Positions 4,761 to 36,511 of a DNA stretch of 64,000 nt are shown here, in pieces. Positions within the stretch are counted from its first letter, which is position 1, and each line of letters starts with the position of its first letter. Source of the stretch: Agelas oroides (lineage: Eukaryota; Porifera; Demospongiae; Agelasida; Agelasidae). The notes beneath the pieces are model-generated. The model did not search any database, had not been told where the DNA came from, and saw only the letters and a program-made list of their open reading frames with translations. The translations under genes and the position numbers were made by a program. The stretch spans positions 5,084,015-5,148,014 of the forward strand of contig OX422204.1 in NCBI GenBank assembly GCA_949130485.1. Direction: 5' to 3'.

Positions 4761-5167
4761 AGAGTAAGCCACCGGTGTTCGGACACCATCAATAATCGGA
4801 CGCTCACCACAGGAAACAGGAGGTAGCAGTCCATCCCATTTAGGCACCGGAGGATAGCACCACTCCACTGTAGTTTAGAACTGGAGTAGCAAGCAGAGCT
4901 GTACTTTAGTCTTGGAGCTACGTACCTGCAAAGTTCGTCGGCCGAATACAGCAAAATTCGGCCCAACTCCATCAATGCGCGGACATGCTACTGGAACTTT
5001 CCAACCGTACATGCTACGACCATGGAACAAAAAGCTGCGGATAACCCAGACCCTCCTTAGTGTGCTCAGTAAATTTGACGTTTATTGCTTTTAAAACGTT
5101 TGCAATCGACATCAAAATGTTAAGTACTTTTGGCCCATCAATGATCGGACTGAAAGAGGGAGGGGCT
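4761..5167 (+). repeat. Left 407-bp terminal inverted repeat
   Basis: Pairs with 12053-12459 along its whole length. It contains the recognisable GGACACCATCAATAATCGGA segment near the outer end and CATCAATGATCGGAC near the inner end, two similar motifs that may be transposase binding sites. Confidence 0.9.
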
Positions 5168-5493
5168 ACGAAGACCATGTGAGGTCCATCGGGGCTCACA
5201 CGCACACGTTGTCATCTCGTGAGCCCTTGGTAGGCGCAAGGAAGGTAATTGGTGTCTGATGTATCTTTGCCAATCCGCTGCTTGTGGTGTTGTAGGATCT
5301 ACAGCAGTGTTGTTCATGTCCTTAGCACAGATTCCTTCTCGTGTTGTATCCATTTGTAGGGTGATTTTGACATCAGTGGCTGAATCATCTCTCTTTGCTA
5401 TAGGGCTGCTGCTAAATACTCTGGTGAGAAGTTTAATTTGAATGAGAAATGGAATACTGTGTGAAAAATGTGTTTTGTTTTCTACCATTTTAG

Positions 5494-6256
5494 ATCACCA
5501 TGTACCATCAGTTTCCTGAACTTGCAGAGATGGTTTACTCATGTAGACCTCATTGGCAAGCCAGAATGTTATCTCCTGTAGTATCTTCTAGGCCTCCAAG
5601 CTATACAGAGTGGAGCAAAGGACAGATGTCTCAAGCCTTTGGGGCTACCGGAATTTTCCCCCTTGATAGGAACAGAGTGAAGCCATCCACAGGCATCATT
5701 GACACTTCGTTGGAAGAGGAGGGTGGCCTTGCATACATTCCTTTACTACGTCCTGCACTAGAACGAAACCAAAAGCTGCCATTAATGCCATCATTTACTT
5801 TGGAAGAAATGGAGGCTTTTCACAGCCGCTACCAAAAGGAGATGGAAGATTGTAGCACTGAGAGTGACAAGCGATACCGCTTATGGATGAAAATGTACCA
5901 CCCACATCTTGAAGCCAGTGGAGATGGTCCATCCTCTTTTCAAGACTCGCTCATACATACACCCGTCAAGAAAGGTCAGCAGAGAGTCACTGTTGCTGTA
6001 TTAGCTCGACAACACAGTACTATCCAGCATATGCTGCGGTGTCCTTCTCCTCCAACTTCTCTGCCTTCCCTTATGCTGAAGACAAGCTGTTGTGTGCTTA
6101 CCAATGCAGAAAACCTTAAGAACATTGATGATAAACAGAAGAAGTGGGATGAGGAAGCACGATTAAAGGAAGAAAGATGGAAGATAAGAGAGCAAAAGAA
6201 GAAAGAAAACCAGAAAAAACGGGCTGCAAAATGTTCTACCCCCAAGTATGTACCAC
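5494..6256 (+). pseudogene. C-terminal exon of a pogo/DDE_1-like transposase
   Basis: The exon follows a TTCTACCATTTTAG acceptor and ends at a strong CCAC|GTAAGTG donor. It encodes about 254 residues. The diagnostic stretch is WSKGQMSQAFGATGIFPLDR, matching the G-F-x-A-T-G-I-x-P pattern found just after the DDE catalytic domain in pogo/Jerky-type transposases. After it comes a linker and a very basic, Lys/Glu-rich coiled-coil-like tail (KKWDEEARLKEERWKIREQ). The upstream catalytic core is absent between 5167 and 5494, so the protein cannot be an active transposase. The exon itself has no internal stop. A following exon was not identified. Confidence 0.55.
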
Positions 6257-7110
6257 GTAAGTGCAATTGCATCTTCAGTATTATATCACTACCGTATTGC
6301 CCCAAGCAAACGTCGATGGGCGCTTGCAGCTCAAGCACCAAAACTAGGAGCAATTGCATGGATTAGTTGCTTGACTGGTTCAACTATCCCCATGCAAGTG
6401 CCCACCCGTATCCGAAGTTAACTGCCATGGGCTGCCAAAACGACCCACATCGTTACTTTACCTGTGCTTTATTTTTAGTTAAATGAGGCCAGCCCAGTAG
6501 TGGAGAAAGCTGTATCGTGCTAGAAAATGGATGGACCCGTAGCCTTGTTGCCAAGCCTCCACAGCATTCATCGCTTGCAGTATGTGTTTCAAAAAAAAAA
6601 ACCTGGTTGCCTGGTCATTTTTAAGTGATTTGTTGGAAAACAAAAAACTAACTTTACGTGGCCTTAGTTGGTTGGCTGAGGAGTACAAAAAGCGCTGTCA
6701 CAATCAGCAGTGATTTATAGCTAGCTGCTAGCCAACGTGATACTGAGCAAATTTTAAATTATGGCCAACAGAATGGGACTAGATGGTACTACACTACATT
6801 ACCTGGCAGTACGGAAAGGTATGGTGAGTGTACACAGACCCGTACATTCGAAAATCACGCTAACTTACTCGCTTACCTGGCAAACTGACCGCTGTACACC
6901 CCAGAGAATGGCCTTCAAGGCGCTATTAAACGCCAAGGTGGTCCTTGTCTGTTTGACTCTAGACTTGGATGTCCAGGCCCATGCTTTGGTTTTGGAATTG
7001 GTCAAAAGCAAAGTGCTGTCTAATTGTTTCCCTAGGCCTAGCCTAGGGTAACAATTAAGCTGTGGCTAACACTTTGCACCGAAACTAATGATCAACACTG
7101 GCTCCCACAG
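6257..7110. other. No confident gene
   Basis: Sequence downstream of the transposase-tail exon. It includes an A-run at 6590-6601 and a short frame at 6761-7051 without recognisable motifs. Probably intronic or decayed element DNA. Confidence 0.4.
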
Positions 7111-7116
7111 GAGGGA

Positions 7117-7240
7117 AGATGACCACTAAGGAGGTTCCAAAAGGTGGTACTGGTGCCAGAAAGTTGCTTGTGGGAGCCATGGAGACCATAAGCCAAAGGA
7201 AGCGTATCAATTTGGAAGGTGATAAAGCATTAACAGTGGG
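7117..7240 (+). other. Exon-like copy A with a GAMETxSQRxR motif
   Basis: The frame from ATG 7119 reads MTTKEVPKGGTGARKLLVGA and then METISQRKRINLE. A diverged second copy lies at 8575-8700 on the same strand. The two copies share the spacing ARKL-GAMET-SQR-R. They may be alternative or duplicated 5' exons of the C48-PHD gene further right. No family is recognised. Confidence 0.3.
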
Positions 7241-7371
7241 TAGTCTGTATGTCATTGAGGCAAGCCTGAGCTAGCCCCACACTAAGTGGAGTCTATGGAA
7301 ATTTCAGAATCTTTGTATGTACATACATGCATCCATTTGTAGTGGACAAATTTCATATGTATTGGGTTAAC

Positions 7372-7790
7372 ACATGGAAATTATTTATACGTCACCGTTA
7401 TATCAACGCGGAAATTAAAGTTATCAGTCCCAATCATAGTGAGGGGCATTGCTTAGCAAGCCCTAGGCCTTGCCAGTGGCCTGATTTGCCTAGATAATGT
7501 GCAACTAGGCTGAACTAAACTCCTGATCTCTGCTAGGTAAGTGATTTGTACTTGTTTGAAGCCATTTTCTGCAGCTGTACATCGTAGCTTACCAGCAATT
7601 TGAAACGGTGCTGATTTTCTCCCTACGTACAATTCCGACAAACTCAGCAGATTTCAGCTTCGCGTTTGATAGCCCTTAGCAAAATTTATGATCAATCACG
7701 AACTAGCACTGCCCCTTCCTGCCTTCCCTGAAGGTGATGTGAGTGGAAAGGTGTGGCACTTATTACTATTCAACAGGTAGGGATTTACCC
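7372..7790 (+). repeat. Inverted partner of the element at 9346-9984
   Basis: From CATGGAAATTATTTATACG to the TAGGGATTTACCC region this segment matches, in reverse, 9466-9978 with moderate divergence and one insertion of about 100 bp. The pair brackets 1.7 kb of sequence and could form a large foldback. Confidence 0.65.
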
Positions 7791-7825
7791 TAAAGTCTTG
7801 CTTGCCTTTGCTACTTTGCTACTTT

Positions 7826-7926
7826 GCCAATATATTGGCGCGAGAGAGCTCGTACAGCTCTCTCATGCCAATATATTGGTGCATTGCGCTACGTGTGTGC
7901 AGCCCATCCGCCAATATATTGGCGCT
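7826..7926. repeat. Three palindromic CCAATATATTGG sites in a 100-bp cluster
   Basis: GCCAATATATTGG(C/T) occurs three times between 7826 and 7926. Between the first two sites is an inverted GAGAGAGCTC...GAGCTGTACGAG-like hairpin. The sites are 12-bp perfect palindromes and look like binding sites or element-internal repeats. Confidence 0.75.
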
Positions 7927-8574
7927 TCGTGTCCTAAGTGTTAAGGCACTAGATTGAATATTGCATGTTAAACCCTTCAATACAGAATGTTGGTCAACTG
8001 TGGCTTCGAAGGCAAACTGCCTCAAATAAAGTCTACTCAAGTCTTGCAAGTAGTCTCGCTATACTCACAACTGACAAGCTAGGCTGCTCACATACATACA
8101 ACAAAGGGCAGCAGAAGTTGCCTCAAGTAACTCTGCCTACATGATACTACTCGCAGCTGACACTGTTGCTCTTTATTGTCTATGAGCAGCCTAGTTCATC
8201 TGCCATGTGTATTGTGTATATAAGGCAGCTTACATCAAGCTTGGTGTAAGCTAACTTGGTCTACACAAGACTTAGCACCATTCACAGGATAATTGGCTCC
8301 ATGTGTAGTGAGGTCTGCTTTTGATTACTGTTCAGTACACAACCTGTGAACCTCTGCTTGACTACTGTACTCAAAATGTGCATGTAAATATATATGGCAC
8401 TCGCTCAGCTTGCCCACAACAATACATGTATACCCTAGTAGTTCTAATAAGCAGTTCTAAGGAGTAGTTCTAATGTCTGTTTAATTAACTCTTTGGTGGA
8501 AGTAATTTTATGACTCCCCTATTTATTGATATGGAAGCTGTTCATTAGTAATTACAAAAATAATATTAAGGGCA

Positions 8575-8700
8575 ATGCTTCAATCCACAGACGTCAAGGT
8601 GAGCACTGCCACTACAAGTGCAAGAAAATTACCCCCAGGAGCCATGGAAACCAGAAGCCAAAGGAGGCGTGTCACCTTTGAAGAAGACAAGGCATCAGGT
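8575..8700 (+). other. Exon-like copy B with a GAMETRSQRRR motif
   Basis: An open frame with ARKLPPGAMETRSQRRRVTF and an acidic stretch ends at a CATCAG|GTAAAT donor at 8700. It is a diverged copy of the exon-like segment at 7117. The basic motif could be a nuclear localisation signal. Function unknown. Confidence 0.35.
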
Positions 8701-8829
8701 AAATCCGTGTGTATGGTGTTTGAATATGAGAAAGCTAGTGTGATGGTAAAGTCACTGCACAATGCAGGCCTGCTGATTTTATTTCAGCATGGTAGTCTGA
8801 GTATCTTGGTTATTAGAACATTAGGTTCT

Positions 8830-10318
8830 TGATGTAATTGGTATGGCCCCGATTATATGCTAACTTTATTGGAATTTAATTAACCTCAACATCAGAGAAG
8901 TCAAATGAAGCTCTACAGAGTGAAAAAGGGGATTGAGAAAGCTTCTTCATGCTTAATTTATACCTAAGTAAGTGTTTGTGAAACACACAGTACCAGTTTA
9001 CGTGGAGCGCCTACCTGCTGCTTGTTGTGTGTACCATCTTTGGCATTTCTTGTTGACAGCGAGATGCAGCCCCGGAACTGTCTTGATACATATGAAGCCT
9101 GAAGTCCACTGTGCCTCTGTTCATGGGGCTGAGAAGAAAATGTGGCTAGTAAGTCACTTCATGATTGAATCGATCGACAACCATCATGGCATCTCACGCT
9201 TATTCCACACGGGGCCCATTATTACATTATCTGAGGGTACTTACAATATTATTAGCTAAACAGATGCTCTCACTGGCCTGTTGGAATTTATTAGCGATGT
9301 GGAGGTGGTCAGTGTTCATGTTCTCATGAATTAGCAGTAACACAGTTAACTCTTTGCACGCGACGGGCACATTTATGTGCCCACGTAACGCTTCCACGCT
9401 ACGTGTGCCCGCTGACATCGTACAATCTTACGAGGTAAATAGCGAAGCCAAGCGAGGTTTTGGGGGTAAATCCCTGCCTGTTGAGTAGTAATAAGTGTAG
9501 ACCACACCTTTCCACTTACATCACCCTGCGGGGAAGGCAGGAAGGGGCAGTGCTAGTTCGTGATCGTTCGTGAATTACAAGAAGGCAGTCAAACGTGAAG
9601 CTTTTTCTTGAACACAGGGAACAAGCGGCTTCTAGGTTTCACATAAGGCAGGAGTACTAACTTCAAATAACTTGGAAATAGACTTGGGCTGTCAGAGCTG
9701 TACATAAAAAAATGAGAAAATCGGCACCGTTTCAAATTGCTGGTAAGCTACAAGGTACACCTACAGAAAATGGCTTCAAACAGGTACAAATCGCTTACCT
9801 AGTTGTGATCAGCAACTTAGAAAGACTAATCCCGCTTAGTTACACGCTATCTATGCAAATCAGACCGCTGGCAAACCCTAGGGCTTGCTAAGCAACGCTT
9901 GGCACTTTGACCTCAGACTGATAAATTTAATTTCCGCGTTAATAAACAGTGACGTGTAAATGACTTCCACATGCAAAGAGTTAAAAGTACATAACAAGAG
10001 CTAGTGGACCACTAATTACATTGAACACCCACTATTATGGACACTCTGCCCTGATTTTTTTCTATGTAGCTCCAAAGAATACTGACCTTACATCTGTCTT
10101 GGCAGATGAAAAGAGTATCTCATTAAGTGACAAATTCCTTATGTGAAGTGATGTGACAAATTAGGCTAATTGGAATCAAGAAACAGCCTTACATAGCAAA
10201 AGCATGAATTTAAAACCATACCTGCTCTACATTGAAACAGAGGTAGTAATTCTGGAATACAAGTGAAAGAAGCTGGGATACAATACTGGTTCAATTAAAG
10301 GATTATCTCTTGTGACAG
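8830..10318. other. No gene; inverted-repeat DNA
   Basis: The stretch 9346-9984 is an element bounded by GTTAACTCTTTGCA and TGCAAAGAGTTAA. Near its left end it has a GGGCACATTTATGTGCCC palindrome and a second half-site. The remainder shows no supported exon. Confidence 0.5.
9346..9984. mobile_element. MITE with GTTAACTCTTTGCA ends
   Basis: The ends GTTAACTCTTTGCAcGCGAC and ...CATGCAAAGAGTTAA are inverted. Most of the interior pairs with 7372-7790. No coding content. Confidence 0.6.
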
Positions 10319-11864
10319 GTTTGAAGATGACCCCATGCAGTTGCACATCTGGATGTACTGCGGCAAAAAGTTGTCTGTGTAAATGCCGACATAGGCAGTG
10401 TACTTCTGAATGCCATCCGTCACGCACTTGTTCACTTCAATGTTCACTTCAATCCCCTATGTCATCAAAGCTATCGACCACAATCAGTGCCGACTCCACA
10501 AGGATCAAGTCACCAAAATCACCAAAGGCACGCACATGGATCAGCCTTGGTGGAAATGATTTGTTGATGGAGGACAAGTGGCTAATTGAAAGTGGGAAGT
10601 GGATAAATGCTCGAACAATATGTGTCTGGCAGTTTCTACTCCAACAAAAATATCCTGGTGTTGGGGGTCTACATTCAACATAGCCTCGTTCCCAGGCTCT
10701 TGTGCGTGGGCGGGGAGAAAAGAGCCTGGTACACACTGTTTGCGCATGCTCAGTTTTCCCAGGATTTCTGGGAATTTGGAAATTTCCGTAAAATATGCTC
10801 CGTTACACTAACCTCCGCGAGGCACGCCGACTTCTCCCGTATAAAAGACGCCTGCCACTGTCCACGCTCTGTGTAGACGATGATGAGGGAGCGACGAAGG
10901 TACTCAGCTCTTCGCTTGCAGGAATTGTCCACGCGTTCGTCCATTCCAGCTAAACGCTGCGGCACGTGAATGACGCAATCTGTCCCTTTGAAGTTCACCG
11001 ATCGCCTCGAACGAAGCAATGCAGACCGTTACTGGCAAAGCGATATTGTTTTTGACTTCAAAACCGCCCGTATGTGTCCCACAAGGAGTGTAACTATGCA
11101 GTGCGGCCTTTCAGCAGGTAAGCAGAAATTGATCGTAATTTTAGTGTAGCGGAGTAGTATGCAGGTTACCATGGGAACTTGGCGCATGCGCGAACAGTGT
11201 GTACCAGGCTCTCTTTCCTCCTCCCCCGTACAAGAGCCTGGGAACGAGGCTACATTCAACAGTACTTGTGTCTAAACGAAAATTCAAGAGAGATTCGAGG
11301 AAGCATGAAGTTGTGCAAGTTCTCAACACTGGAAACAGCCATTGGGTTGCAATATCAACACTTGGGTGTTCTGTTGGTGTTGTGCACTGGCTGGACAGCA
11401 TGCACTGTGGACCATCATCTCAGCTTAAGGTGATTGTATCAGATCTGCTGCAATGCCCAAAGGACTGTATCCAGATAAAAATGCTCAACGTGCAATTACA
11501 GTCAGGTGGTAGTGACTGTGGATTGTTTGCATTGGCCAACATAACAGCTGCCCTTGATGGTGTGGATCCTTCTTCACTTCACTTCATTCAGAAGCTCATG
11601 CGAACTCATCTTGTCACTTGTTTAGAGCAAAAGGACCCCAGGTCTTTCCCACTAGATCTGTCAAAGAGGCAAGCACGGTCGACGAAAATCTTGGATACAC
11701 AGACTTTAAGGATTTATTGTGTATGCCGGTTACCTGACAATGGGAACCTCATGGTTATGTGCACCAAGTACCATAAATGGTTTCATAAGAGCTGTACTGA
11801 AGTTAGGGACAAATCTGCATCTGAACTCAAGAAGATAGACTGGAACTGCACAAGTTGTAGCTGA
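10319..11864 (+). pseudogene. C48 (Ulp1/SENP-like) protease with N-terminal Cys cluster and C-terminal PHD finger, interrupted
   Basis: The exon opens after a TTGTGACAG acceptor at 10319. Its first 40 residues hold a dense Cys cluster (CSCTSGC, CLCKC, C-x4-C), probably zinc-binding. After a linker comes the start of a C48 fold (DKWLIESGKWINARTICVWQ). At 10680 the frame is interrupted by a 572-bp element. It resumes at 11253 with the catalytic region: the His of NSHWVAIS, the Asp of WLDSM, and the Gln and Cys of QLQSGGSDCGLFA. A PHD finger follows (YCVCRLP, MVMCTKYHKWFH, WNCTSC), with a stop at 11862-11864. The two halves are in the same frame if the element and one copy of its 9-bp duplication are discounted. 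Members cleave SUMO-like modifiers; related proteases also ride on transposons. It lies inside the 7.7-kb TIR element. As it stands the gene is broken unless the insert is spliced out. Confidence 0.7.
10681..11252. mobile_element. TAGCCTCG-family element inserted in the C48 exon
   Basis: The ends TAGCCTCGTTCCCAGGCTCT and its complement are inverted. CATTCAACA occurs immediately on both sides (10672-10680 and 11253-11261), a clean 9-bp target duplication. The interior contains GCGCATGCGC-like sequence and no gene. The 9-bp duplication is typical of Mutator-like elements (inference). Confidence 0.9.
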
Positions 11865-12052
11865 AGTCATTGCTGTGTTCTCTGTGTTATGTGTTCTGTG
11901 TGCGGCAGCACATACAGATTGCAAACATCTACTTTGTACTCTAAGTCACTAATAATCAGTAGTGAAGATCATTGCTTAGTAAGGAAACAATACTGTAGCT
12001 GGGTACCTACCGTGAGCCCGTGCGGTGACCTCAATGGGCAGGGAAGCTCAGC

Positions 12053-12459
12053 AGCCCCTCCCTCTTATAGTCCGATCATTGATGGGCCAAAAGTACTTAA
12101 CATTTTGATGTCGATTGCAAACGTTTTAAAAGCAATAAACTTCAAATTCACTGAGCACACTAAGGAGGGTCTGGGCTATCCGCAGCTTTTTGTTCCGTGG
12201 TCGTAGCATGTACGGTTGGAAAGTTCCAGTAGCATGTCCGCGCATTGATGGAGTTGGGCCGAATTTTGCTGTATTCGGCCGACGAACTTTGCAGGTACGT
12301 AGCTGCAAGACTAAAGTACAGCTCTGCTTGCTACTCCAGTTCTAAACTACAGTGGAGTGGTGCTATCCTCCGGTGCCTAAATGGGATGGACTGCTACCTC
12401 CTGTTTCCTGTGGTGAGCGTCCGATTATTGATGGTGTCCGAACACCGGTGGCTTACTCT
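12053..12459 (-). repeat. Right 407-bp terminal inverted repeat
   Basis: Reverse-complement copy of 4761-5167, marking the right end of the 7.7-kb element. Sequence to its right (12460 on) has no matching partner. Confidence 0.9.
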
Positions 12460-13311
12460 ACTTGCAGTAGCAGGGTAGTGAGGTAGTAATTAGTACTCAC
12501 CGTATACTCGCCGACGTAGAAGAGTAATACGGTAGTGAGGTAGTAGCTCGGGTCAACTAAATTTACCCTGTATTTCGCCCCCTTTTTCACAGGTGCCGTG
12601 TACTTGCACAATTACGACCTGTAACTTGTGCAGCAGTGACTTCATCCAGGCGCAAAGCGCTTCGCACTGTTCTACGAGCTATTCGGAGTTTTCATAACAG
12701 CAGAATTAATAATTATTAATAATTAATAACTATTCCGGAAATTAAAAAAGGTCATGTGATGTAAACAATGTGGTGAAAAACAGTTACTGCAATTGTATGA
12801 GACAAAGTGGACACAGGTACTAGTTGACAATGTTCATTCTACAATATAACCTGTGGTATTAGTGCAGCATAATAACAAACAGCACTGTGTTTATGTTTTC
12901 CTCAGCCAGATTCTCAAGCAGCTGAGGGTCTGGTCAAATTCCCATTATGCTATGGTGTAACTTAAGTGGTAGACTACCAAACAAAGTGATGTGCAGCCAA
13001 TTAGATCCTACCATCGAAATTCCACAATGCATGCTTCGAGTAAAACTGAGAAGGCAACTGCAAGCATTTTTTGACATCACATTTGTTCAACACCCAATTA
13101 ATACACTAAGAAATTTTTGGCATGTTAAGCATGATATGATGATGGATTTCACCAGACTCTCCTCATTGAGAGTCTGGCCCATGAGACTAACACTGATACA
13201 CAGGATAATAATGGAATAAATATGACACTAGTCCAAGATAAGAAGATAAGAGATAATAAGATGACTGCATGGATCTACTTACTATACAAGTACGGTAACA
13301 TATCAGGTCCT
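12460..13311. other. No confident gene
   Basis: AT-rich flank. It contains an AATTATTAATAATTAATAA tract near 12710 and a 90-codon frame at 12947-13219 without a recognisable motif. Confidence 0.4.
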
Positions 13312-13797: not shown

Positions 13798-16127
13798 GGG
13801 TCATTCCATGTCAAATCAACACAAAAAAATCCTTACCCTCACCGATTTGAACGAAACTTGGTTCTTACACAGTGTCTGTTGAGATATTAACCCACAGTGA
13901 ATTTCAGTGTTCTGCAATGTATGGCTTCAGAGTTAGAACCAGACGAAAAATTGATTTTTCGGAAATTTTCAGCTTACCTATTGTTACTAAATCAACCATA
14001 ACTTTGAGTGAGATTAAGGTTATGAGCTACAATTTACATCACTTGTAGCTCACAAAATTTCCTTTCGTTTGATATAATTAACAACTATATCCCATAAAGT
14101 TTGGGTCAAAGGTCGTCATTAGTGCACTTTGACCTTTGCTATCTCAAAAACGAATATTTTAATTCTGATTAATTATTTTCCAAATGTTGTTTGGATCCTT
14201 CTCTCCAAGTGGTATTAAAATGGTTTTGGGACTGACATGGGATTGGGAGATATGTGACAGAATGTAATGGCAGTTAGGGGAGATGTATTGTAAAGCATTC
14301 CTATACTTACCTGATGGTGGTTCATTTTGATTGGTATGGTGGTGGATACCTTTGCAAACATGACACGACAAAATATCCATGATTCCATGGTTGATATGTG
14401 ATGTCCCAAGTGGTGGTTGCCATGGTTATTAGGTCAGTTATCTCCTCTAGTGAGCACTTTAGTGTTGTGTGGAGAAAGGTGAACAGGGAATAATCTAACA
14501 CCAGACATCTCTCAAACACCATGTCAGATGTGTGACCACACCAACAAAATCAATTTTATATATAATATTTCATCGTGATTCAATTCGTCACAATTTCATG
14601 GGTGTAAGTGGTGGTGTAGTCTTGATACCAGGCCTGTGTTGCCTTAAGTTTCTATTTGCTTGCAATACACAATTACGAAGGGTTAGTCATGTGCTTTGAA
14701 ATCAGGGTAAACACGCACAGGGTAGTGCCTGACCATAATATTTCATGCCTAGCGGTAAGCAGTATTCATCCTGCTTTGCAAATGCTCCAGCTTCCAATGA
14801 ACATTAGAGGAAAGGGCCTTGAGATCCTCAACCCCGCTCTCCCTGCCCCCTCCCCCCCAACTGTGTGTCTACCCTCTGTCTACCTGCTGCCATGCATGTG
14901 GTCAGATCTTCCAGACCTTACCCCTCTGTATCACATTTTTGTATACTACATAGTTATGATGAAAGACTATGTGCACTTACTTCACAAGAGTGGTTGCTGT
15001 TGACAACAAAGTCCACTTCTCAAAGAATTCAAGCATAAACAGCAAGCAAACAGCCAGCCTTTCTAGTAATGTGAGAAGAATTAACTTCACATCGCAGCTA
15101 GTGCAGGCACCATTTCCATGCAGGTGCTACGTACTTTGCCAAGCTTTAACTCACACTCGGTGCAAGTTTCAACTCAGACTCGGTGTTCGTGCAATTCAGC
15201 AAGGATCTTGCCTTCTGATATAGCTTTCTATCACCAGTATTGCAATTTTCCTAAGGTTCATGACATTATCACTCAGTAAGCTACCTCCAAATTCACCAAG
15301 TTGAATCTTATTTAAAATCACCGTAGCTATCAATCAGCTAAATTTTATCCTCTCAAAATTTCCAGCCCTATTGCATTACTGAAATGCAAACATTGTGGGG
15401 AGAGCCTGAGCATGTTGTAACAAAAAAAAAGAATGCTCATCATTTCCACATGTTGAACAGCACTGAACTGCTCACTAGAGGAGACAACTGACCTAGTAAC
15501 CATGGCAACCACTACTTGGACATTACATACCAACCATGGAATCATGGATATTTTGTCATGTCATGTTTGCAAAGGTATCCACCACCATACCAATCAAAAT
15601 GAACCACCATCAGGTAAGTATAGGAATGCTTTACAATACATCTCCCCTAACTGCCATTACATTCTGTCACATATCTCCCAATCCCATGTCAGTCCCAAAA
15701 CCATTTTAATACCACTTGGAGAGAAGGACCCAAACAACATTTGGAAAAAAATTAATCAGAATTAAAATATTCGTTTTTGAGATAGCAAAGGTCAAAGTGC
15801 ACTAATAATGACCTTTGACCTGAACTTTATGGGATATAGTTGTTAATTATATCAAACGAAAGGAAATTTTATGAGCTACAAGTGGTGTAAATTGTAGATC
15901 ATAAAGTTAATCTCACTCAAAGCTATGGTTGATTTAGTAACAATAGGTAAGCTAAAAATCTCCAAAAAATCTATTTTTCGTCTGGTTCTAATTCTGAAGC
16001 CATACATTGCAGAATGCTGAAATTCACTGTGGGTTAATATCTCAACAGACACTGCGTAAAAACCAAGTTTCGTTCAAATCGGTGAGGGTAAAGATTTTTT
16101 TTGTGTTGATTTGACATGGAATGACCC
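13798..16127. mobile_element. 2.3-kb foldback element with arms of about 660 bp and TATT duplication
   Basis: Arms 13798-14460 and 15472-16127 are inverted copies starting GGGTCATTCCATGTCAAATC. TATT flanks both ends, suggesting a 4-bp target duplication. Each arm holds the same small coding-like stretch (MDILSCHVCKGIHHHTNQNE), followed in the right arm by a perfect CAG|GTAAGTA donor. One arm is shifted in frame relative to the other. The spacer (14461-15471) shows no gene that I can support. Confidence 0.8.
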
Positions 16128-20827: not shown

Positions 20828-21120
20828 GATCCACAGCCAGCCCTTTATAGCTTGACGACTGACGAGCAAAGCGATTAGCTACACCTGTCTTCTTTGAAGG
20901 TTATGACGTCGTATAGTAGTAGACCTCGCAAATCCCGCGCCCGCGCAAGCTGCGTGCGCACAACGCGCGAGGTAGTCTCGTCCCATGGCCCAGACACCAA
21001 ATTTTTCGCGCGCGAGGATGAACTTAATTGCAACATAATTATATTTCGAAATAGAGATGAACACACCAAATATCAAATGCAGGGGAACTTAAATAACATC
21101 CTTAGACTTTACTTTAGGAA
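20828..21120. promoter_or_regulatory. GC-richer stretch with CpG clusters upstream of the ATPase gene
   Basis: 20930-21015 is rich in CGCG (CCCGCGCCCGCGCAAGC, GTGCGCACAACGCGCGAGG, TCGCGCGCGAGG), unlike its AT-rich neighbourhood. It lies just upstream of the minus-strand gene and may be a promoter-associated CpG cluster. This is inference from composition and position only. Confidence 0.3.
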
Positions 21121-21652
21121 GTAGTGGCTTTCTGTTCATGGCCACACACAATGCAGTGTAGTTGTTTCTTCTTGTTACAGTACGATGAAGAAAGAAGTAG
21201 TGGCTTTCTGTTCATGGCCACACACAATGCAGTGTAGTTGTTTCTTCTTGTTACAGTACGATGAAGAAAGAAGCAGTGGCTTTCTGTTCATAGCCACACA
21301 CAATGCAGTGTAGTTGTTTCTTCTTGTTACAGTACGATGAAGAAAGAAGCAGTGGCTTTCTGTTCATGGCCACACACAATGCAGTGTAGTTGTTTCTTCT
21401 TGTTACAGTACGATGAAGAAAGAAGCAGTGGCTTTCTGTTCATAGCCACACACAATGCAGTGTAGTTGTTTCTTCTTGTTACAGTACGATGAAGAAAGAA
21501 GCAGTGGCTTTCTGTTCATGGCCACACACAATGCAGTGTAGTTGTTTCTTCTTGTTACAGTACGATGAAGAAAGAAGCAGTGGCTTTCTGTTCATGGCCA
21601 CACACAATGCAGTGTAGTTGTTTCTTCTTGTTACAGTACGATGAAGAAAGAA
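21121..21652. repeat. 76-bp tandem repeat, seven copies
   Basis: Units start at 21121, 21197, 21273, 21349, 21425, 21501 and 21577, each with GTAGTGGCTTTCTG or GCAGTGGCTTTCTG. Differences between copies are single bases (GTAG/GCAG, CATGG/CATAG). The minus strand of the unit reads as the 3' coding end of the adjacent transposase relic, so the array grew from a coding fragment. Confidence 0.95.
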
Positions 21653-22025
21653 GCAATGATGTGTCTTCGGCATAGCTGATACTATTTTCTTAAATCAAGA
21701 TAGCCAAGCGAATGTCTGCTCAGCGCATATTAAGTTAAAGTTTGGATTGGCTTCCTTTACAGGACTTGGATCATACTGGACGAGGCACCTTGGATCTTTA
21801 TGATTCTTTATATGTAAATTGTCGATAATTTTGGTGACAGACTTCCACATGGTGTGGAAGGGTGGAGAAAGTGGTAGATTTTCTTGAGCTGCCTTCAGTT
21901 GATCAAGGTGGCACATATTGTCATAACACACCACTACATTCTTCCATTCATCTGTAGGGATCATGCTGAGAGTATGCAGCAGCCACCTTATCGTTATTAT
22001 AAACACTTGGGAGGGTGATTCCGAT
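21653..22025 (-). pseudogene. 3' exon of a Cys/His-rich transposase (KDZ/Zisupton-like), broken
   Basis: The exon begins after a TTTATCATTTACAG acceptor at 22025. It reads VVVCYDNMCHLDQLKAA, then KIIDNLHIKNHKDPRC, then NLICAEQTFAWLS. A TGA at 21695 interrupts the frame, after which it continues as FKKIVSAMPKTHH and runs into the tandem array as FFLHRTVTRRNNYT. The order DNxC, HxxNHxDPxC, CAEQxFxWL, HHxFxLHRxVxRRNxYT matches the conserved tail of a transposase family I remember from sponges and cnidarians, for which KDZ/Zisupton-like is my best label. The TGA most likely replaces an Arg CGA codon. Upstream exons are probably lost or scattered; the segment at 26815 may be one of them. Confidence 0.5.
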
Positions 22026-29085: not shown

Positions 29086-29690
29086 ACATAGCTCCATGAG
29101 GTTACATCATAAAACCTCACATGGGAGTTCCCCAGAGGAGGTGCGACACTATCACGTGCGCTATGCATTAATGAACATTCCAAGGACTAAAACCATCGAT
29201 ACAACAATCGGAAACGGGAGACAATTTATTCACACAAGTTGGAGTACGCTCACGTGACATTTGACACAGCGCATGCATGTAGTCGTGACCGCGCGAGAAG
29301 CGCGGGAAATATAATATGTTCAGATAGCGCAACTGAAGCTAACCGTCATGGAGAGACCCGAATGGGCAGAAGGATTAGAGGCCAAAGGGGTGTACTTTGA
29401 GGGCATGGTCAGCGATGCAGACCAGAGAGTGGAGAGGCACAACCTGGAAACTGTAACTTCCTATGGTACCAGGACGTCAAGGAAAGTACCAGTAGTGAAC
29501 ACACCTCCACCAACACCACAACTCAAAGAAAATGTAAGTTGAGCATTATTCATTATTATACCACATTACATCACTTTCTAAGTATTTCAGTGGATGAACA
29601 GCGGAGTGTAACGGGTCATATACTCCTGTTATATGTAAAAAATAGTTTGCACAAAACTGATTATAGTTTACTGTCTGACTGTGGTATAAA

Positions 29691-29763
29691 TTGGATATAC
29701 TACCTATACTTGGCGCCATGGGGTATGAACATGAATACTCCAAGTATAGGTAGTACATCCAAT
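29691..29763 (+). other. Short perfect-stem hairpin in intron 1
   Basis: TTGGATATACTACCTATACT at 29691 pairs with 29740-29763 over 23-24 bases with a single mismatch; the loop is about 26 bases. The size and pairing resemble a miRNA precursor, but a tiny palindromic element is equally possible. Confidence 0.4.
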
Positions 29764-30823
29764 ACTTATATTGTAAAGGTAGGACTACATTTTCATAAAG
29801 AATGAAACTTCATACACAGGAACAAAAGCAACATAAAGCCCCACGGTTGTTTCTGAAGAAAACAGAAGGAGGTCAGAAAATTGACTTCAAAAGCACACCG
29901 TTCTCTGTGGAAGAAGAAAAGATTATGGATTGTCAGTACGGTCATCACTACTTTCTCAAAAAACAGGGAAAAAACAAACAACTCAGATTACAAGACACCA
30001 AGAAAGTTGGGTGTCAGGCCAAAATCAAAATCAAGTCCTTCACACTCTACCCGGAATATTCATTACCAAAACAGAGCCTGAGTTCACGGCAACAAAAACA
30101 GCTTCAAGAAGAGGTATTGGAACAACTCAGGCAGGACCTGGCAAGTGGTAAGGTGCAGTACAAGTGGAAAGAAAGTACTTTGTGTCCTTACCTACTGAAG
30201 AGGCACACAGTGGACACCCTACAGGTCATTGCAGTGGATTCAGCCAACGGATACATCCCCTTCTGATTGAGCAGATCACTGAAGTTGTGTCTGCAGGTAT
30301 AACCAACACTGGAGAGGTGAAAAGATTACTACGTCATTACACCAGAAATACACTTGCTAAACACCTAGGAATCCAAGTCACACCCAACAACCGAGCTCTT
30401 TTTCCAACAGATATTGATGTGAGAAATCATGTTGCCACTGCTAAAAAGGCTAGCATAGCAAGCACAAACAGCCTATATCATAGAATAAGTCATATCTCAA
30501 GTGTATCCTATTGACCTATATCGCTTATTTCATTACAACAGGTGCAGAGGGAAGATGATACACAAATCTCTCACAAAATAGGTATCACATAAATGTATAC
30601 CTCGGTTTGTAACCGTGTCAATTGCTTGCCTCCTTCCCCACAGGACAGAAGCGTAAGCGGTGTGGAGACTGTGAGGGGTGCAAAAGAGATGATTGTGGGA
30701 GTTGCAAGTTCTGCAAGGACAAGCCTAGGTTTGGGGGTCCTAACAAGAAGAAGCAGTGTTGCATTATGAGAAGATGCCACCTGGCAACCACTGAAAAAGT
30801 AAGATCTACATTGTTTGTATGTA

Positions 30824-31254
30824 CACTGTAAATAATTTTGGGTTGTTTCAACCTGTTAAGGGTTGTCTGAGTTGCGCACATGTACAGAGGAGTAATTATA
30901 ATTCTATAAAATATCACGTTTCAAACAAATAAGCAATTTGTTCAACGAAATCAGCCTGCTTTGATGTGACATACCATATAAATGTGAACCAAATTGAGCA
31001 ATTTGTTCAAGAAATTGGGATGTGACATTACAAATTTGTTCCTTCCTATGTAACGTCACATCAAAGCATAGCTCGGTTTCTTGAACAAATTGCTCAATTT
31101 GTCCTTACTATCTAGTATGTCATATCAAAGCAGGCTAATTATGTATAATTTGTTCAACAAATTTCTCAGTGATATTTCAGCATTACTCCTACATACATGT
31201 GTGCAACTCAGACAACCCTATAATGGTTGAAACAACCCAAAGTTTTTTACAGTG
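30824..31254. mobile_element. MITE with CACTGTAAA ends, in the CXXC-OTU intron
   Basis: The inverted ends extend through GGGTTGTTTCAACC and GTCTGAGTTGC and are flanked by TA. An inner inverted pair (CAGCCTGCTTTGATGTGACA near 30953, complement near 31118-31137; TTGAGCAATTTGTTCAAGAA in between) makes a nested palindrome. The element is intronic and does not affect coding. Confidence 0.8.
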
Positions 31255-32355
31255 TACTCACTGGATTTATTTCCTTTTTTTTTTTAATATCAGGCTGTGC
31301 CATCCAACAAGCTACCCCTAGCTTCCTCTAACCCAGACCATGTCCTCTCCATACAAGGAAGGAAACGCCACAGCATCATTGGTGATGGAAATTGCCTTTT
31401 TAGGGCCCTGGCCTACATCGTGTATGGTACAGAAGATCTTCATGCAAAGATGAGATCACTGTTAGTGGATTTTGTATCCAAAAATCAACCACTTTTCCAG
31501 CCACTAGTCATCTCAGGAAAGCTTGAAGAACATATACAATACATGCTTCATTCCAGACAGTGGGGTACGCAAGTGGAACTACAAGCAGCTTCAACCTTAT
31601 TTCAGATGGATCTTTACACTCTACGACAATCCCCCCAAACACACGAGTATGGCTAGACTAGGTACAAGCCACATGAAGCTACTAATCTTCAATTCCCTAC
31701 TGAAAATTATCCAAGGACCCTCAATGCTATGGATCACATGGAACTATGCCATACTGGTGGCTGTCACTTTGACTGCATTGTTGATGAAGAGAACCTTTTC
31801 CCACTTGTTTGCCCACGCTTACCCGGAAGTCACATATACATAGACAAAGTCTACTAATACTTTACATTTTTACTTCTGCTTACTTTTGTTTTCACTCTTT
31901 CTTGTATATAGTCCGCTCCTTTCTTCGTCTACTAGTGTCGTATCACATTCTGACGTAATTTGTTGTGGCACGTGACTTCCGTACTCCGACTTGTGTGAAT
32001 AAATTGTCTCCCAATCGGAAACGCTGTGCGCAAAGATCAAGATGGGTTTAGGGGGGTTTTCGTGATGCTGAAAGTGTCTCGCCAGTCAGAAGTAACATTG
32101 CATGCCTTTGTGACCTCCAAACGGCATTCATGTGGCTGTTGAGAGCTAGATGAACGGCGGTGATCGATCTCGACCTAATAGATAGCTTCAGTATGGTTGA
32201 AAATACCCCCCAACCCGAGTGAACCCAGCACGCTAGAAGCTTCTGATGCCCAGAAATCGTCCTTGAAGCAATGGAATGCAGGAGGTTAGCAATTAACTTG
32301 ACAATCAGGATCACGTGTTGATGTATATGACATCACTAGTGTCGGACCTCCTCTG

Positions 32356-33389
32356 GGAGTTCCCCGCGCGTGCCCACCGCATAATCGCGATAACCCTCTT
32401 TCTACGTAATTTAACTAACTTCTGAACTAGCATGCATTCAGAGAGTATGCAGCATATCAAGGTAAAAGAGACCAAGTAGGCATAATATCAGTAAGATAAA
32501 GTAGTCAGGATGAAGGTATATATTCGTGGCAGTTGTTGAGGGGGGAAATGGACTGTACAGGACAGAGCTAGCCTCCATAAAACATGCATATAAGACTGCC
32601 GAGTACAGCATACTTGGTGAAGATGATCATGTGAGAGTACAATCAGTCCATGAGGCCTAAATTTGGGCAGTGAAAGCATGTACATGCAGTGCTGACAGAA
32701 AGCTGGGTGGAACTTAGGAACAAGGCTGATTTGAAACATACAAGTATGCTAAAGTAATGATTGGTATACTTGTGTGACACGGTCTTGGGCTTGTAGTACA
32801 CAGACAGTATCATTGAGTGAGAATTTAGCATATCAAGTGTAATAGAATCAAGTAAGCAACATAAGTAGTCAGTGGAGAAGGTAGAAATTTCATGAATAGT
32901 TTGAGTGCAAGCTCACAATGCACACACCTAACCGTACACAGCAGGTTTGCCATGGTACTGACAAATTATGCACACAAACTTGAAATCTTGATCGACTTGT
33001 GTGTGACAAGAAGTTACCATGTACATGCTTTCACTGCCCAAATTTAGGCCTCATGGACTGATTGTACTCTCACATGATCATCTTCACCAAGTATGCTGTA
33101 CTCGGCAGTCTTATATGCATGTTTTATGGAGGCTAGCCTGTACAGTCCATTTCCCCCCTCAACAACTGCCACGAATATATACCTTCATCCTGACTACTTT
33201 ATCTTACTGATATTATGCCTACTTGGTCTCTTTTACCTTGATATGCTGCATACTCTCTGAATGCATGCTAGTTCAGAACAATTTTTAGTTAGTTAAATTA
33301 CCTAGAAAGAGGGTTATCGCGATTATGCGGTGGGCACGCGCGGGGAACTCCCATGTCAGGTTTTATGACGTAACCTCATGGAGCTATGT
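32356..33389. repeat. Foldback arms of the outer element
   Basis: 32356-32690 and 33010-33389 are inverted copies sharing TGCAGCATATCAAGG and CCATGAGGCCTAAATTTGGG. A fragment of the same family (CTGCATACTCTCTGAATGCA) occurs at about 27651-27671. Confidence 0.85.
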
Positions 33390-34024: not shown

Positions 34025-34794
34025 CCGTAGTGTCCCGTTAATACGCCCCCTTCGAAAATACGCCCCCCCCCCTCTTTTCCGCCAAAGTTCCTGCACAGGG
34101 TAGTTTGACTCGTTATAACGCCCCCCGGTGAGCGTCTTCTGGAACATCAAAACTACACGTGCTTACTATACGTTGCAAGTGCGTTCAGTAAGACTATAGT
34201 AGTCGGTGAATCTTTTGTAAGTTTTGTGGCTTTTAGAAAAGCCGGTTAGATGTTCCAAGTTTTAAGCTGCTAGTTTAGCAAACAGGTTTATCAGTCTGTC
34301 AAGGTGTTTTTGTTTCCCTCTGAAGATGTACACGCACGGAACCACGAGTCCTTTCCCATCAACTTCAGAACGTCTTCTGTCACCATTGACGATGCAAGTC
34401 ATCTCGCTGCCACTCTTGTGCAAGAAATACCAGCAGACTCTGGAAATTTCCCGTGGTACATGACCGACAGTGTTGCCGTTCTTGAGGACAGCTACAGCGA
34501 AGTCGTCGTGAATGTTATTGACCTCGCGTTGAACTGGCAGCTCTTCTCCGATGTAGGGAGACCACGCAGCTTTGTAAACGTGATGTCCGCGAACAGTACT
34601 CTCGATCCTGAAAGTCGTCGCCATAGTTAGTTGGAAGTGTCCTAATTGCGTACATAGCACTTGCGTAAAATCTTTTGGGGGGGGCTTATAGTCGAGACTA
34701 ATTGCATCCTCGAATATAAGCCCCCCCCCCCCCCCCCCACTTTAGGCGGGATGTAGTGTACAAAATGGGGGGACGTATTAACGGGACACTACGG
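34025..34794. mobile_element. TIR element carrying a HIRAN gene, copy 1
   Basis: The inverted ends CCGTAGTGTCCCGTTAATAC and complement are flanked by TA on both sides. Subterminal C-rich and G-rich tracts form a second hairpin (GGGGCTTATAGTCGAG / CTCGAATATAAGCCCC at 34680-34730). The only gene inside is the HIRAN frame on the minus strand. It is nearly identical to 44119-44879. Confidence 0.9.
34262..34624 (-). CDS. HIRAN-domain protein encoded inside a TIR element
   Basis: The single-exon frame of 120 codons starts with MATTFRIESTVRGHHVYKAA. An upstream in-frame ATG (34660) would add 12 residues, but this start matches the beginning of the domain. The HIRAN signature is complete: G-x-x-x-Y then IGEELPVQREVNNIHDDFAV, AVLKNGNTVGHVPREIS, and a conserved IVNGDRRRS-VPCVYIFRGKQK tail. 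HIRAN binds single-stranded or 3' DNA ends in HLTF/Rad5. Here it stands alone with no helicase. The identical protein at 44359, with silent or no changes, suggests a recent copy. Promoter elements would lie in the right end of the element. Whether it is expressed, or helps the element move, is unknown. Confidence 0.8.
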   Translation of the reverse strand: MATTFRIESTVRGHHVYKAAWSPYIGEELPVQREVNNIHDDFAVAVLKNGNTVGHVPREISRVCWYFLHKSGSEMTCIVNGDRRRSEVDGKGLVVPCVYIFRGKQKHLDRLINLFAKLAA

Positions 34795-34856: not shown

Positions 34857-36511
34857 ATGGCTACTACTAAGCGCAACAGAAGAAAGATATCTTTTTCAGG
34901 AGTGGAGGTGCACATCTGTGTACTGTGTCAGACCTCTCACAGTCACATGTCAACACCATCAGCATGGAAAAATGAGCAAGCTCGCAAACTAGTGCTTTCC
35001 CTTCAGGTATCTCTGGAATCATTGGTATGCCGTCCCTATAGGGATGACATAGCCCGAATGCTCTCCAACTCACATTACATACCTAGATGGGTAGATGAAA
35101 ACACAAAGCAAGATGACAAAGCAAGTTGTTGTGTTCTAGAATGCAATAACAGCCATTTTGCATCAATTACATCAGGTACCAGAGGAGGTACGACAGCATC
35201 ACGTGATACTAGAGTGCCCTCCCCTTTCAAATACAAACTGCAATAGTAAAATCGTCAATCTGTTTGAGCACTGTTAAAGCGGGCTATCATTTTGATATTT
35301 TGAGGAATGAAAGTGCATCGACCGACAAGTCAAGCGAACACCAAGGCCCTGGTCGGCCCCTCACTTAGTAAGCGTACTTGTACTATGCTTACTGTTGTAT
35401 TCGGGTTGGAACTTTGCACTTCGAGAGCACCCCAGGGACCGGCGCCTGCATGTGCAGGCCACAAAGAAAAGTGGAAGTAAAATCACTAAAATGCCTCTTA
35501 AGACTACAAAAAGCTATACTTGTCCGCAGTAATTACATTCCACACACATTTAACCCCTTCGGTGACATCACCATGTCGTGCCTCCTCTGATCATGTACTG
35601 CACATCAAATTTCCTTATATCGGGAGTAAAGTGTTCCATTAATCCTATCCCAGTACCAACACCAATGTGCCATTCTTTCCAAAGTCTTACAAACTCTATA
35701 CGTGTGCACTGGTTGTGATTACATCTCTTTTTTTAGCCAGCTTGGTAAAGCCACATTTTTAAGCTACTTCTTTCAGTATGCTTCGTTCATTACTGGTGGA
35801 GAGCAACCAGGTACACTTGCCGACACACAACTCAATGAATAGAGGTTCAAGCTTGGGTTCCTTGCATTCATGAGATTAGTGTACTTTAAGAAGCATGCTA
35901 CAGGTTTTGACACACCATCACCATCTGCACACTTCCTCCAATTCCAAACACCAACCACATCTATCAAACAGCAACATATATGCCTGGATGACATCCGTCA
36001 AAACATATGGTATCGAATCAAATTTGAAAATGAAATGTTACCATCTACTGAGGCTCTGTTCTTACATTGGCAGAGATCATGCTGGGTGATCCATATGTGG
36101 GAACAGGCAGACAGAAACACAATGACATTTGAGCCCATCACACATCATGGATGGAACATCACTGATGAGAAACTCACAGTTCTTTGGGACACACCTCAGA
36201 ACATGCAAGCAGTCCGTGACAGAGTGAAGCTGTTGTTAAGAGGGTGCAAATGTGTAACTGGCTGCACCACTGGGAGATGTGGTTGCAAGAAAATCAACCA
36301 ACACTGCTCTGAAGGATGTGAGTGTAAGAACTGCTCCAATATCACTACTGTAGAAAACGAAACAGACATAGCAGACATTGCCCTAGAAGAAGAATACAGC
36401 ACTAGTGAAAATATTGACACTGATGAAATTATGGACTGGGTGTTTGGCAATGAGCTACCAACATCCCAAGACGAAGAATTAACTGATGAACAAGATGATT
36501 TCACCGTGTAA
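34857..36511 (+). pseudogene. Cys-rich transposon-linked gene, split by an insertion and a stop
   Basis: Part one (34857 to about 35174) encodes a basic start, then CVLCQTSHSHMS, ASAWKNEQ-like SAWKNEQARKLVLSL, CRPYRDDIARML and CCVLECNN: paired Cys typical of a zinc-binding N-terminus. It ends at a CATCAG|GTAC site next to the 410-bp element. Part two (about 35738-36511) reads FITGGEQPGTLADTQLNE, hits a TAG at 35839, then continues RFKLGFLAFMRLVYFKKHAT to the stop at 36509. It has a W-x5-W region and a Cys cluster LLRGCKCVTGCTTGRCGCKK followed by CSEGCECKNC, and an acidic tail. This C-terminal cluster is common in uncharacterised, mobile-element-linked proteins of aquatic invertebrates. No function is known. 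The linkage of both parts is inferred from order and strand. Confidence 0.45.
35180..35589. mobile_element. 410-bp element with CAGAGGAGGT ends, non-autonomous
   Basis: The ends CAGAGGAGGTACGACA and TGTCGTGCCTCCTCTG match those of the 3.2-kb element at 29133. The 9-bp flanks ATCAGGTAC and ATCATGTAC differ at one base. The interior has no gene. Confidence 0.85.

What the first reader, a model, noticed from the sequence alone, without database searches (positions are those of the whole stretch)
29133..32355. ALS2CR8-CXXC-OTU fusion gene packaged in a TIR element with a 9-bp target duplication
The gene unites an ALS2CR8/CARF-type DNA-binding region, a CpG-binding CXXC finger and an OTU deubiquitinase, and is bounded by CAGAGGAGGT inverted ends with GGAGTTCCC repeated outside. 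A mobile unit with a CpG reader and a deubiquitinase could target unmethylated DNA and counter host ubiquitin marks. No transposase is visible, so it may be a captured host gene or a lineage that lost it.
Basis: partly seen in the sequence, partly recalled or inferred. Interest (0 to 1): 0.78.

Follow-up and report, generated by a model that had tools for sequence, protein, structure and literature searches.

The report
Broken jumping gene with CpG reader
The window holds a broken copy of a jumping gene whose fuller relatives in the same genome appear to join a cut-and-paste enzyme to a reader of unmethylated DNA and a ubiquitin-removing enzyme, and coding copies tend to sit in CpG-dense DNA.

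Summary
The domains are real (ALS2CR8, CXXC, OTU), and so are the CAGAGGAGGT ends with the 9-bp repeat GGAGTTCCC, but they are not one element. The outer ends belong to a separate ~418-bp MITE (126 exact ends in the 259-Mb genome). Inside it sits a second element (29216-32012) with its own 33-bp inverted ends and 10-bp target duplication; a MITE copy elsewhere shows the empty site. Seven relatives carry 2.5-2.9 kb that this copy lost; where scanned, that stretch encodes a Mutator-like (MULE) transposase and a SWIM-like motif, apparently in one spliced gene: ALS2CR8-MULE-SWIM-CXXC-OTU. The window copy is also frameshifted, has an in-frame stop and carries another MITE. Seven other diverged families here show the same order. 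CXXC lies downstream of 28 of 39 ALS2CR8-linked MULE hits, against 1 of 80 others. Coding copies lie in CpG-dense DNA: at least 4 CpG in the 100 bp outside the 5' end in 20 of 21, against 2 of 20 random sites and 0 of 22 MITE flanks. A written prediction on solitary ends held in only 1 of 4, so targeting is suggestive, not shown. OTU in a MULE is on record; I found no report of ALS2CR8 or CXXC in one in the library searched.

The parts
29124..29132 (.). 9-bp target duplication GGAGTTCCC of the outer MITE (left)
29133..29215 (+). left part of outer MITE (TIR 29133-29151), interrupted by the nested element
   Evidence: aligns with intact MITE L004
29206..29215 (.). 10-bp target duplication AATCGGAAAC of the nested MULE (left)
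   Evidence: single copy (AATCAGAAAT) in MITE L004
29216..32012 (+). nested, internally deleted MULE copy
29216..29248 (+). left inner TIR (33 bp, 1 mismatch to the right one)
29348..29533 (+). predicted exon 1, start ATG, donor GTAAGT (inference from sequence)
   Evidence: a similar first exon is seen in L041
29820..30451 (+). exon 2, ALS2CR8 domain, with a frame change relative to relatives
30451..30455 (.). junction of the internal deletion (2.5-2.9 kb in seven relatives; MULE and SWIM exons missing here)
30644..30798 (+). CXXC zinc-finger exon
30821..31257 (.). TA-type MITE (CACTGTAAA ends) inserted in the CXXC-OTU intron
   Evidence: many copies of query 1690-2125; C5 copy lacks it there
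31294..31857 (+). OTU exon, in-frame stop at 31654-31656
31980..32012 (-). right inner TIR
32013..32022 (.). 10-bp target duplication AATCGGAAAC (right)
32023..32355 (+). right part of outer MITE (TIR 32337-32355)
32356..32364 (.). 9-bp target duplication GGAGTTCCC of the outer MITE (right)

Best explanation
The locus is a dead, internally deleted copy of a Mutator-like DNA transposon that jumped into a separate 418-bp MITE. Fuller relatives encode what looks like one multi-domain transposase: an ALS2CR8-type N-terminal domain (probably end-binding), a MULE DDE core, a SWIM finger, a basic linker, a CXXC finger and a C-terminal OTU cysteine protease. Shown: the nesting, the family, its ends and 10-bp duplications, the domain order, its recurrence across diverged families, and the CpG-dense flanks of coding copies. 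Inferred: the enzyme cuts at its GGG...TTCAC ends and inserts with a 10-bp stagger; the CXXC finger docks it on unmethylated CpG-dense DNA (and perhaps on the CpG-dense start of the element itself); OTU strips ubiquitin from the enzyme or from chromatin there. I put the nested-MULE identity at about 0.97, one spliced polypeptide at 0.85, CXXC-guided site choice at 0.45 and OTU acting on chromatin at 0.2.
For: Empty site in MITE L004 versus the duplicated target in the window. Rows of relatives stop at the inner ends. MULE PF10551 1.2e-10 and PF21056 3.1e-11 in copy C5, in the stretch deleted here. 10-bp duplications at 12 of 15 copies with both ends read: 9 perfect, 3 with 1-2 mismatches. Donor and acceptor sequences that keep the frame from MULE to CXXC to OTU in copy C5 (read by eye). 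ALS2CR8 and MULE over cut-off in one ORF in families A, B, C, D, E and G; in F over two ORFs with MULE just under its cut-off. CXXC and OTU hits at the expected places in all seven. 42 of 69 ALS2CR8 hits have MULE within 4 kb downstream, 0 upstream. 45 of 69 have CXXC within 10 kb downstream, 1 upstream. 48 of 91 CXXC have OTU within 4 kb downstream, 0 upstream. 28 of 39 MULE hits with ALS2CR8 have CXXC within 8 kb downstream versus 1 of 80 without, Fisher 3e-17, and that one has its own ALS2CR8 hit before the CXXC. CXXC closest in PDB to KMT2B (4.2e-14) and KDM2B, OTU to OTUD1 (1.1e-9). Flanks of up to 400 bp: CpG o/e 0.88 (21 copies) versus 0.47 random (20) and 0.45/0.37 at two MITE types (6 and 5), GpC unchanged. 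Left-flank o/e falls from 1.16 at 0-50 bp to 0.48 at 600-800 bp.
Against: No transcript or protein data; splicing is read from sequence. Four solitary ends of the window family, chosen with a written prediction, gave 1, 3, 8 and 1 CpG per 100 bp, so 1 of 4 met it. The CpG signal was found on copies chosen for carrying coding sequence, so survival of copies in unmethylated DNA, or loss of flank CpG with age, could produce it. Copies of one family are not fully independent samples. General MULE preference for open promoters is not excluded: no MULE lacking CXXC could be tested. Right flanks show no clean decline. 24 of 69 ALS2CR8 hits have no CXXC downstream, and L040 has no OTU hit nearby. dN/dS was 0.15-0.42 for ALS+MULE in the seven pairs with at least 13 changes (0.8 in one pair with 4 changes), but SWIM, CXXC and OTU segments had few changes and mixed values (0 to 0.78). 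3 of 15 copies show no target duplication. C5 has lost the exon-2 acceptor seen in the window. The K/R-FGG loop of the CXXC finger is varied in four of eight families.
Confidence: 0.85

Rival explanations
1. One TIR element with a 9-bp duplication carries the fusion gene as captured host cargo.
For: Ends and duplication are real; MULEs tend to acquire host gene fragments (PMC6446971, abstract start seen in the listing).
Against: Empty site, inner ends and inner 10-bp duplication; no listed relative extends to the outer ends; the domains recur with MULE in eight families.
Confidence: 0.02
2. CpG-dense flanks reflect survival, not targeting: insertions are random, but copies in unmethylated CpG-rich DNA stay intact while those in methylated DNA decay, with their flanks.
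For: Copies were picked for coding content; solitary ends met the threshold in 1 of 4; MITE flanks are CpG-poor next to the element (o/e 0.20-0.30 within 200 bp versus about 0.5 beyond).
Against: Family A copies are 98.7-99.8% identical, which leaves little time for sorting (inference); six of six window-family coding copies, more diverged (C8 rows 91-96% identical to the window copy), still have 4-9 CpG in the first 100 bp; the left-flank excess lies mostly within 200 bp of the junction.
Confidence: 0.3
3. A general preference of MULEs for open promoter chromatin puts copies in CpG-rich promoters; CXXC has another role, for example binding the element's own CpG-dense start.
For: First 150 bp of seven families have CpG o/e 0.85-1.35 against 0.29-0.43 in the body; a propensity of MULEs to insert in or near genes is stated in the abstract of PMC6446971 (listing).
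Against: The 9-bp-duplication MITE, Mutator-like by its duplication length, has CpG-poor flanks, though it is non-coding and of unknown age and transposase.
Confidence: 0.25
4. CXXC-OTU is a separate host or passenger gene lying next to the MULE.
For: 16 CXXC-OTU pairs have no ALS2CR8 hit within 10 kb upstream; for one of them (C2:15499001-15499972) the 2.6 kb I read upstream holds no MULE-like ORF.
Against: Same order and strand in 37 of 69 ALS2CR8 hits, none reversed for CXXC-OTU and one for ALS2CR8-CXXC; frame-keeping splice sites; in C5, C11 and C2 both inner TIRs enclose everything.
Confidence: 0.08

Closest known systems
Mutator-like elements (MULE/MuDR) of animals
   Same: MULE DDE core, SWIM finger, TIRs, 10-bp duplication within the 8-11 bp range given in PMC6446971
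   Different: ALS2CR8 N-terminus, CXXC finger and OTU in apparently the same gene; the main texts of PMC6446971 and PMC13359780 contain neither ALS2CR8 nor CXXC
MuDR-6_HM (Hydra), group 14 in PMC6446971 Table 1
   Same: a MULE listed with an 'Ovarian Tumour Gene'
Ginger1 DNA transposons (PMC2836005)
   Same: C-terminal OTU (or Ulp1) protease on a transposase
   Different: Gypsy-integrase-like DDE, not MULE
Ulp1-bearing plant and animal MULEs (cited in PMC2836005)
   Same: a ubiquitin-like-protein protease joined to a Mutator element
   Different: Ulp1 instead of OTU; no CXXC mentioned in that text
KMT2 and KDM2 CXXC proteins
   Same: best PDB matches of the CXXC finger
   Different: host chromatin regulators, not transposases
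CARF (ALS2CR8) and ZSWIM1/3
   Same: Pfam models named after them (PF15299, PF21056) match this transposase
   Different: host genes; that they descend from such elements is my inference

Membership tests
MULE superfamily | MULE DDE transposase domain | tested here: met
   PF10551 over cut-off in the C5 copy and in families A, B, C, D, E and G; absent from the window copy, where the stretch is deleted
MULE superfamily | D-D-E catalytic residues | tested here: met
   two D invariant in 6 aligned families; E read in the TNNGxE-type motif of the next exon; that these are the catalytic residues is recalled
MULE superfamily | terminal inverted repeats | tested here: met
   33 bp, 1 mismatch, in the window copy; matching ends read in families A, B, C, E and F; for D and G only one end was seen or none confirmed
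MULE superfamily | 8-11 bp target duplication | tested here: met
   10 bp in 12 of 15 copies with both ends read
MULE superfamily | SWIM finger (common, not universal) | tested here: met
   PF04434 over cut-off in B, D, E, F, G and L076; below it in W, A and C
MULE superfamily | active transposition | not tested
   near-identical copies (98.7-99.8% in family A) suggest recent activity
CpG-binding CXXC fingers | zinc-binding cysteines | tested here: met
   cysteine pattern kept in the eight aligned families; PF02008 over cut-off
CpG-binding CXXC fingers | K/R-FGG loop (recalled as the CpG-contacting type) | tested here: inconclusive
   intact in A, B, F and W; varied in C (CFGG), D (KFSG), E (VFGG) and G (KYGG)
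CpG-binding CXXC fingers | binding to unmethylated CpG | not testable with these tools
   needs protein
OTU deubiquitinases | catalytic DGNC and His motifs (roles recalled) | tested here: met
   DGNC in 8 of 8 families; HYD/HFD in 5 of the 6 with a complete ORF, HYK in C
OTU deubiquitinases | ubiquitin cleavage | not testable with these tools
   needs protein
Phantom MULEs | FLYWCH N-terminus and Phantom clade membership | not tested
   no reference sequences at hand; no FLYWCH match listed

The most novel reading that the evidence does not exclude
A DNA transposon lineage carries its own epigenome reader and eraser: the CXXC finger steers insertion to short unmethylated CpG-dense sites, and the OTU domain removes ubiquitin there (for example the H2A ubiquitin that CXXC-guided Polycomb complexes lay down), so the element lands in and stays in active chromatin. 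The ALS2CR8 domain of vertebrate CARF would be a relic of the same transposase lineage.
Probability: 0.2. Interest if true: 0.88.

Novelty: new variant of a known kind. Interest (0 to 1): 0.62.

Why it matters
How DNA transposons choose sites, and how they survive in methylated genomes, is largely open. A transposase that appears to contain a reader of unmethylated CpG, in a CpG-depleted genome, makes the question directly testable: remove one small domain and map new insertions. It also offers a possible source for the ALS2CR8 domain, and a MULE lineage in which the OTU protease, noted before in one Hydra MULE and in Ginger1 and Helitron elements, is kept across diverged families next to a chromatin reader.

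Tried and rejected
Single-element reading of the CAGAGGAGGT ends: rejected by the empty site. Mantel comparison of domain divergence between eight families: only MULE-OTU correlated (r 0.62, p 0.015; r 0.59, p 0.09 without F and G), the others did not, so it does not settle whether CXXC and OTU were acquired once. dN/dS on CXXC and OTU: too few changes; pairs D43 and E42 lacked the 3' part in the DNA read and gave meaningless rows there. Structure of the ALS2CR8 N-terminus from the window alone: mean pLDDT 44, not used. Viral contigs: 94 pattern matches, none a relative by tblastn. A first CpG run on 500-bp flanks was replaced by the controlled run. Rows left out of the CpG counts: the 21 copies are 15 of the 30 ALS2CR8 loci L039-L068 plus 6 window-family copies read from other loci. 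L039, L041, L042 and L065 were used only in the extended set (25 copies, mean o/e still 0.88); the 5' ends of L039 and L041 were confirmed later by their duplications. L040, L045, L046, L049, L056, L060, L064 and L068 were not used for lack of a clear 5' end. L047 and L048 are the C11 and C5 copies already counted. L059 duplicates L058. Two flanks lie in a CpG-rich repeat (C5, L066); without them the first-100-bp o/e is 1.08. The 39 remaining ALS2CR8 hits have no loci of their own; some are copies read through. The organism was not identified.
Full report
What is in the window. The OTU frame has a stop at 31654-31656. The outer ends CAGAGGAGGTNCGACACTA lie at 29133-29151 and 32337-32355; 3 matches with up to 3 mismatches in 64 kb against 0.03 expected. 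GGAGTTCCC stands directly outside both.

Two elements, one inside the other. The outer ends occur 126 times exactly in the 259-Mb genome, 0 times for the reversed control; many of the 100 places listed pair at about 400 bp. MITE copy L004 is 418 bp and aligns with both outer parts of the window element. Where L004 reads GATACAAC-AATCAGAAAT-GCTGT, the window reads GATACAAC-AATCGGAAAC, then a 2.8-kb insert, then AATCGGAAAC-GCTGT. The insert, 29216-32012, has its own 33-bp inverted ends with one mismatch; their first 24 bases occur 19 times exactly in the genome, 0 for the control. The outer MITE makes 9-bp duplications: 4 perfect (L001, L002, L003, L006), 1 with a mismatch (L008) and 1 without (L004) among six copies read. 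L001's lies in another MITE end.

What the inner element lost. With the whole region as query, one search listed 96 matches from the 40 candidates scored of 1016; apart from the window itself none reaches before position 71 or past 2891. Seven relatives have 2.5-2.9 kb between query positions 1319 and 1323, that is at window 30451-30455. I read copies from overlapping loci of one contig. In copy C5 (4880 bp) the ALS2CR8 frame runs on to 504 aa and contains MULE (PF10551, 1.2e-10) and ZSWIM1-3 RNaseH-like (PF21056, 3.1e-11); then come a SWIM-like motif (PF04434, 0.0054, below cut-off) and a basic linker before CXXC and OTU. Donor and acceptor sequences keep one frame from the MULE part through CXXC to OTU (read by eye; inference). 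So the window copy lacks a transposase because of an internal deletion. A further MITE with TA duplication sits in its last intron at 30821-31257; C5 lacks it there.

A lineage. PF15299 gives 69 matches in the genome. Ends, ORFs and downstream DNA of other families (A L054, B L067, C L057, D L044, E L039, F L041, G L068) show the same order. Pfam finds ALS2CR8 over cut-off in all seven and MULE over cut-off in six; in F the ORF is split by a stop and the MULE piece is just under the cut-off. CXXC and OTU hits fall at the expected places in all seven, though F and G have broken OTU frames. An eighth, L040, has MULE in a broken frame, SWIM and a CXXC 5.4 kb downstream, but no OTU hit listed near it. 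Between families ALS2CR8 is 39-56% identical, MULE 47-62%, CXXC 38-65% and OTU 24-53% (F and G partly covered). Copies within family A are 98.7-99.8% identical, so movement was probably recent. Genome-wide, on hit lists that the tool calls lower bounds (CXXC: 150 of 151 candidates scored; MULE: 150 of 194): MULE within 4 kb downstream of ALS2CR8 in 42 of 69, upstream in 0; CXXC within 10 kb downstream in 45 of 69, upstream in 1; OTU within 4 kb downstream of CXXC in 48 of 91, upstream in 0; all three in order in 37 of 69. CXXC lies downstream of 28 of 39 MULE hits that have ALS2CR8 and of 1 of 80 that do not. Nested, duplicated and split copies count separately in these numbers.

Ends and duplications. 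Of 15 copies with both ends read, 9 have perfect 10-bp duplications (window, C2, C9, L039, L041, L051, L053, L062, L067), 3 have 1-2 mismatches (C11, L052, L054) and 3 have none (C5, L050, L057). For L055 and L066 no right end was found.

Domain function by similarity. The CXXC finger is closest among solved structures to KMT2B (4.2e-14), then KDM2B and KMT2A, readers of unmethylated CpG (recalled). Its K/R-FGG loop is intact in four of eight families and varied in four. The OTU domain is closest to OTUD1 (1.1e-9) and OTUD5, with DGNC kept in eight of eight families.

CpG context. The window is CpG-depleted (o/e 0.58; TpG 1.30, CpA 1.27), as expected of methylated DNA (inference). In flanks of up to 400 bp of 21 coding copies CpG o/e averages 0.88, against 0.47 at 20 random sites, 0.45 and 0.37 at two MITE types (6 and 5 copies) and 0.56 in 79 window tiles; Mann-Whitney 2.5e-5 against random and 6.4e-7 against the 31 random and MITE controls together, while GpC o/e does not differ (p 0.84 and 0.33). 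Means by family are A 0.92, B 0.95, C 0.86, D 0.75 and window family 0.84, so no one family makes the effect, but copies are not fully independent. In left flanks the excess peaks at the junction: 1.16 at 0-50 bp, 1.03 at 50-100, 0.84 at 100-200, 0.60 at 200-400, 0.61 at 400-600, 0.48 at 600-800. Right flanks, fewer, run 1.13, 1.17, 1.20, 0.86, 0.54, 1.01 and show no clean decline. At least 4 CpG lie in the first 100 bp at 20 of 21 left and 11 of 13 right flanks, 2 of 20 random and 0 of 22 MITE flanks. The window's own insertion has 5 and 5.

A result against this. I wrote a prediction before reading solitary ends of the window family. They held 1, 3, 8 and 1 CpG: 1 of 4 met the threshold. So dense flanks mark coding copies; whether through targeting, survival or age is open. 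The first 150 bp of seven families are CpG-dense (o/e 0.85-1.35) while their bodies are depleted (0.29-0.43), so the finger might instead bind the element's own start.

Literature. PMC6446971 (passages and part of Table 1 seen) gives 8-11 bp duplications for MULEs and lists MuDR-6_HM with an 'Ovarian Tumour Gene'; its text has no ALS2CR8 or CXXC. PMC2836005 (passages seen) reports OTU on Ginger1 transposases and in some Helitrons, and Ulp1 on Mutator elements. PMC4048464 (passages seen) shows CXXC-guided KDM2B/PRC1 laying H2A ubiquitin at CpG islands, which suggests one possible OTU substrate. PMC13359780 and PMC10027918 held none of my domain terms. Searches for ALS2CR8 with transposon (1 paper, a cancer review, listing seen), MULE+OTU+CXXC+transposase (0), Mutator-like + CXXC zinc finger + transposon (0) and zf-CXXC + transposase (15 papers, 10 listed, none on a transposase with CXXC by title; PMC12460157 checked by passages) found no such architecture. 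Looser searches were seen as listings only, apart from the papers named. Repbase and subscription papers were not searched.

Verdict. A broken copy of a multi-domain MULE lineage, nested in a separate MITE. It is a new variant of a known kind; its CpG link is a strong lead with one follow-up that mostly failed.

Noticed in passing
G000:C2:15499001-15499972 (upstream read as L106): CXXC and OTU hits with no ALS2CR8 hit nearby and no MULE-like ORF in the 2.6 kb read upstream; could be a degraded copy or a host gene derived from the transposon. 16 such CXXC-OTU pairs are listed.
   Followed up: partly
first 150 bp of elements, e.g. L067, L057, L044, C5: CpG o/e 0.85-1.35 in the first 150 bp of seven families against 0.11-0.64 in the next 150 bp: a CpG-dense start in each family looked at.
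   Followed up: partly
L054:234-599 (G000:C1): A second OTU-like ORF directly upstream of the family A copy, with a CXXC hit before it (C1:21929294): perhaps two elements of this lineage side by side.
   Followed up: no
32354-33353: Long, almost perfect palindrome (arms 32354-32420/33287-33353, 32420-32561/33137-33278, 32567-32686/33018-33137, 99-100% complementary), starting at the outer MITE's right edge.
   Followed up: no
4757-12463: Inverted arms of 411 nt, 98% complementary, 6.9 kb apart: possibly another large DNA element.
   Followed up: no
13823-16101: Inverted arms of 584 nt, 96% complementary, 1.1 kb apart.
   Followed up: no
21042-21734: Tandem array with 76-bp spacing, inner copies 98-99% alike.
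   Followed up: no
34262-34741: ORF on the minus strand with a HIRAN domain (PF08797, 1.5e-7).
   Followed up: no
35843-36511: 222-aa ORF with a weak Tesmin/TSO1-like cysteine-rich match (0.037, below cut-off), near a diverged MITE end at 35180.
   Followed up: no
flanks of MITE copies L001-L008, L034-L038: CpG is depleted next to these MITEs (o/e 0.20-0.30 within 200 bp, about 0.5 beyond), as if methylation spreads from them or they avoid CpG.
   Followed up: no
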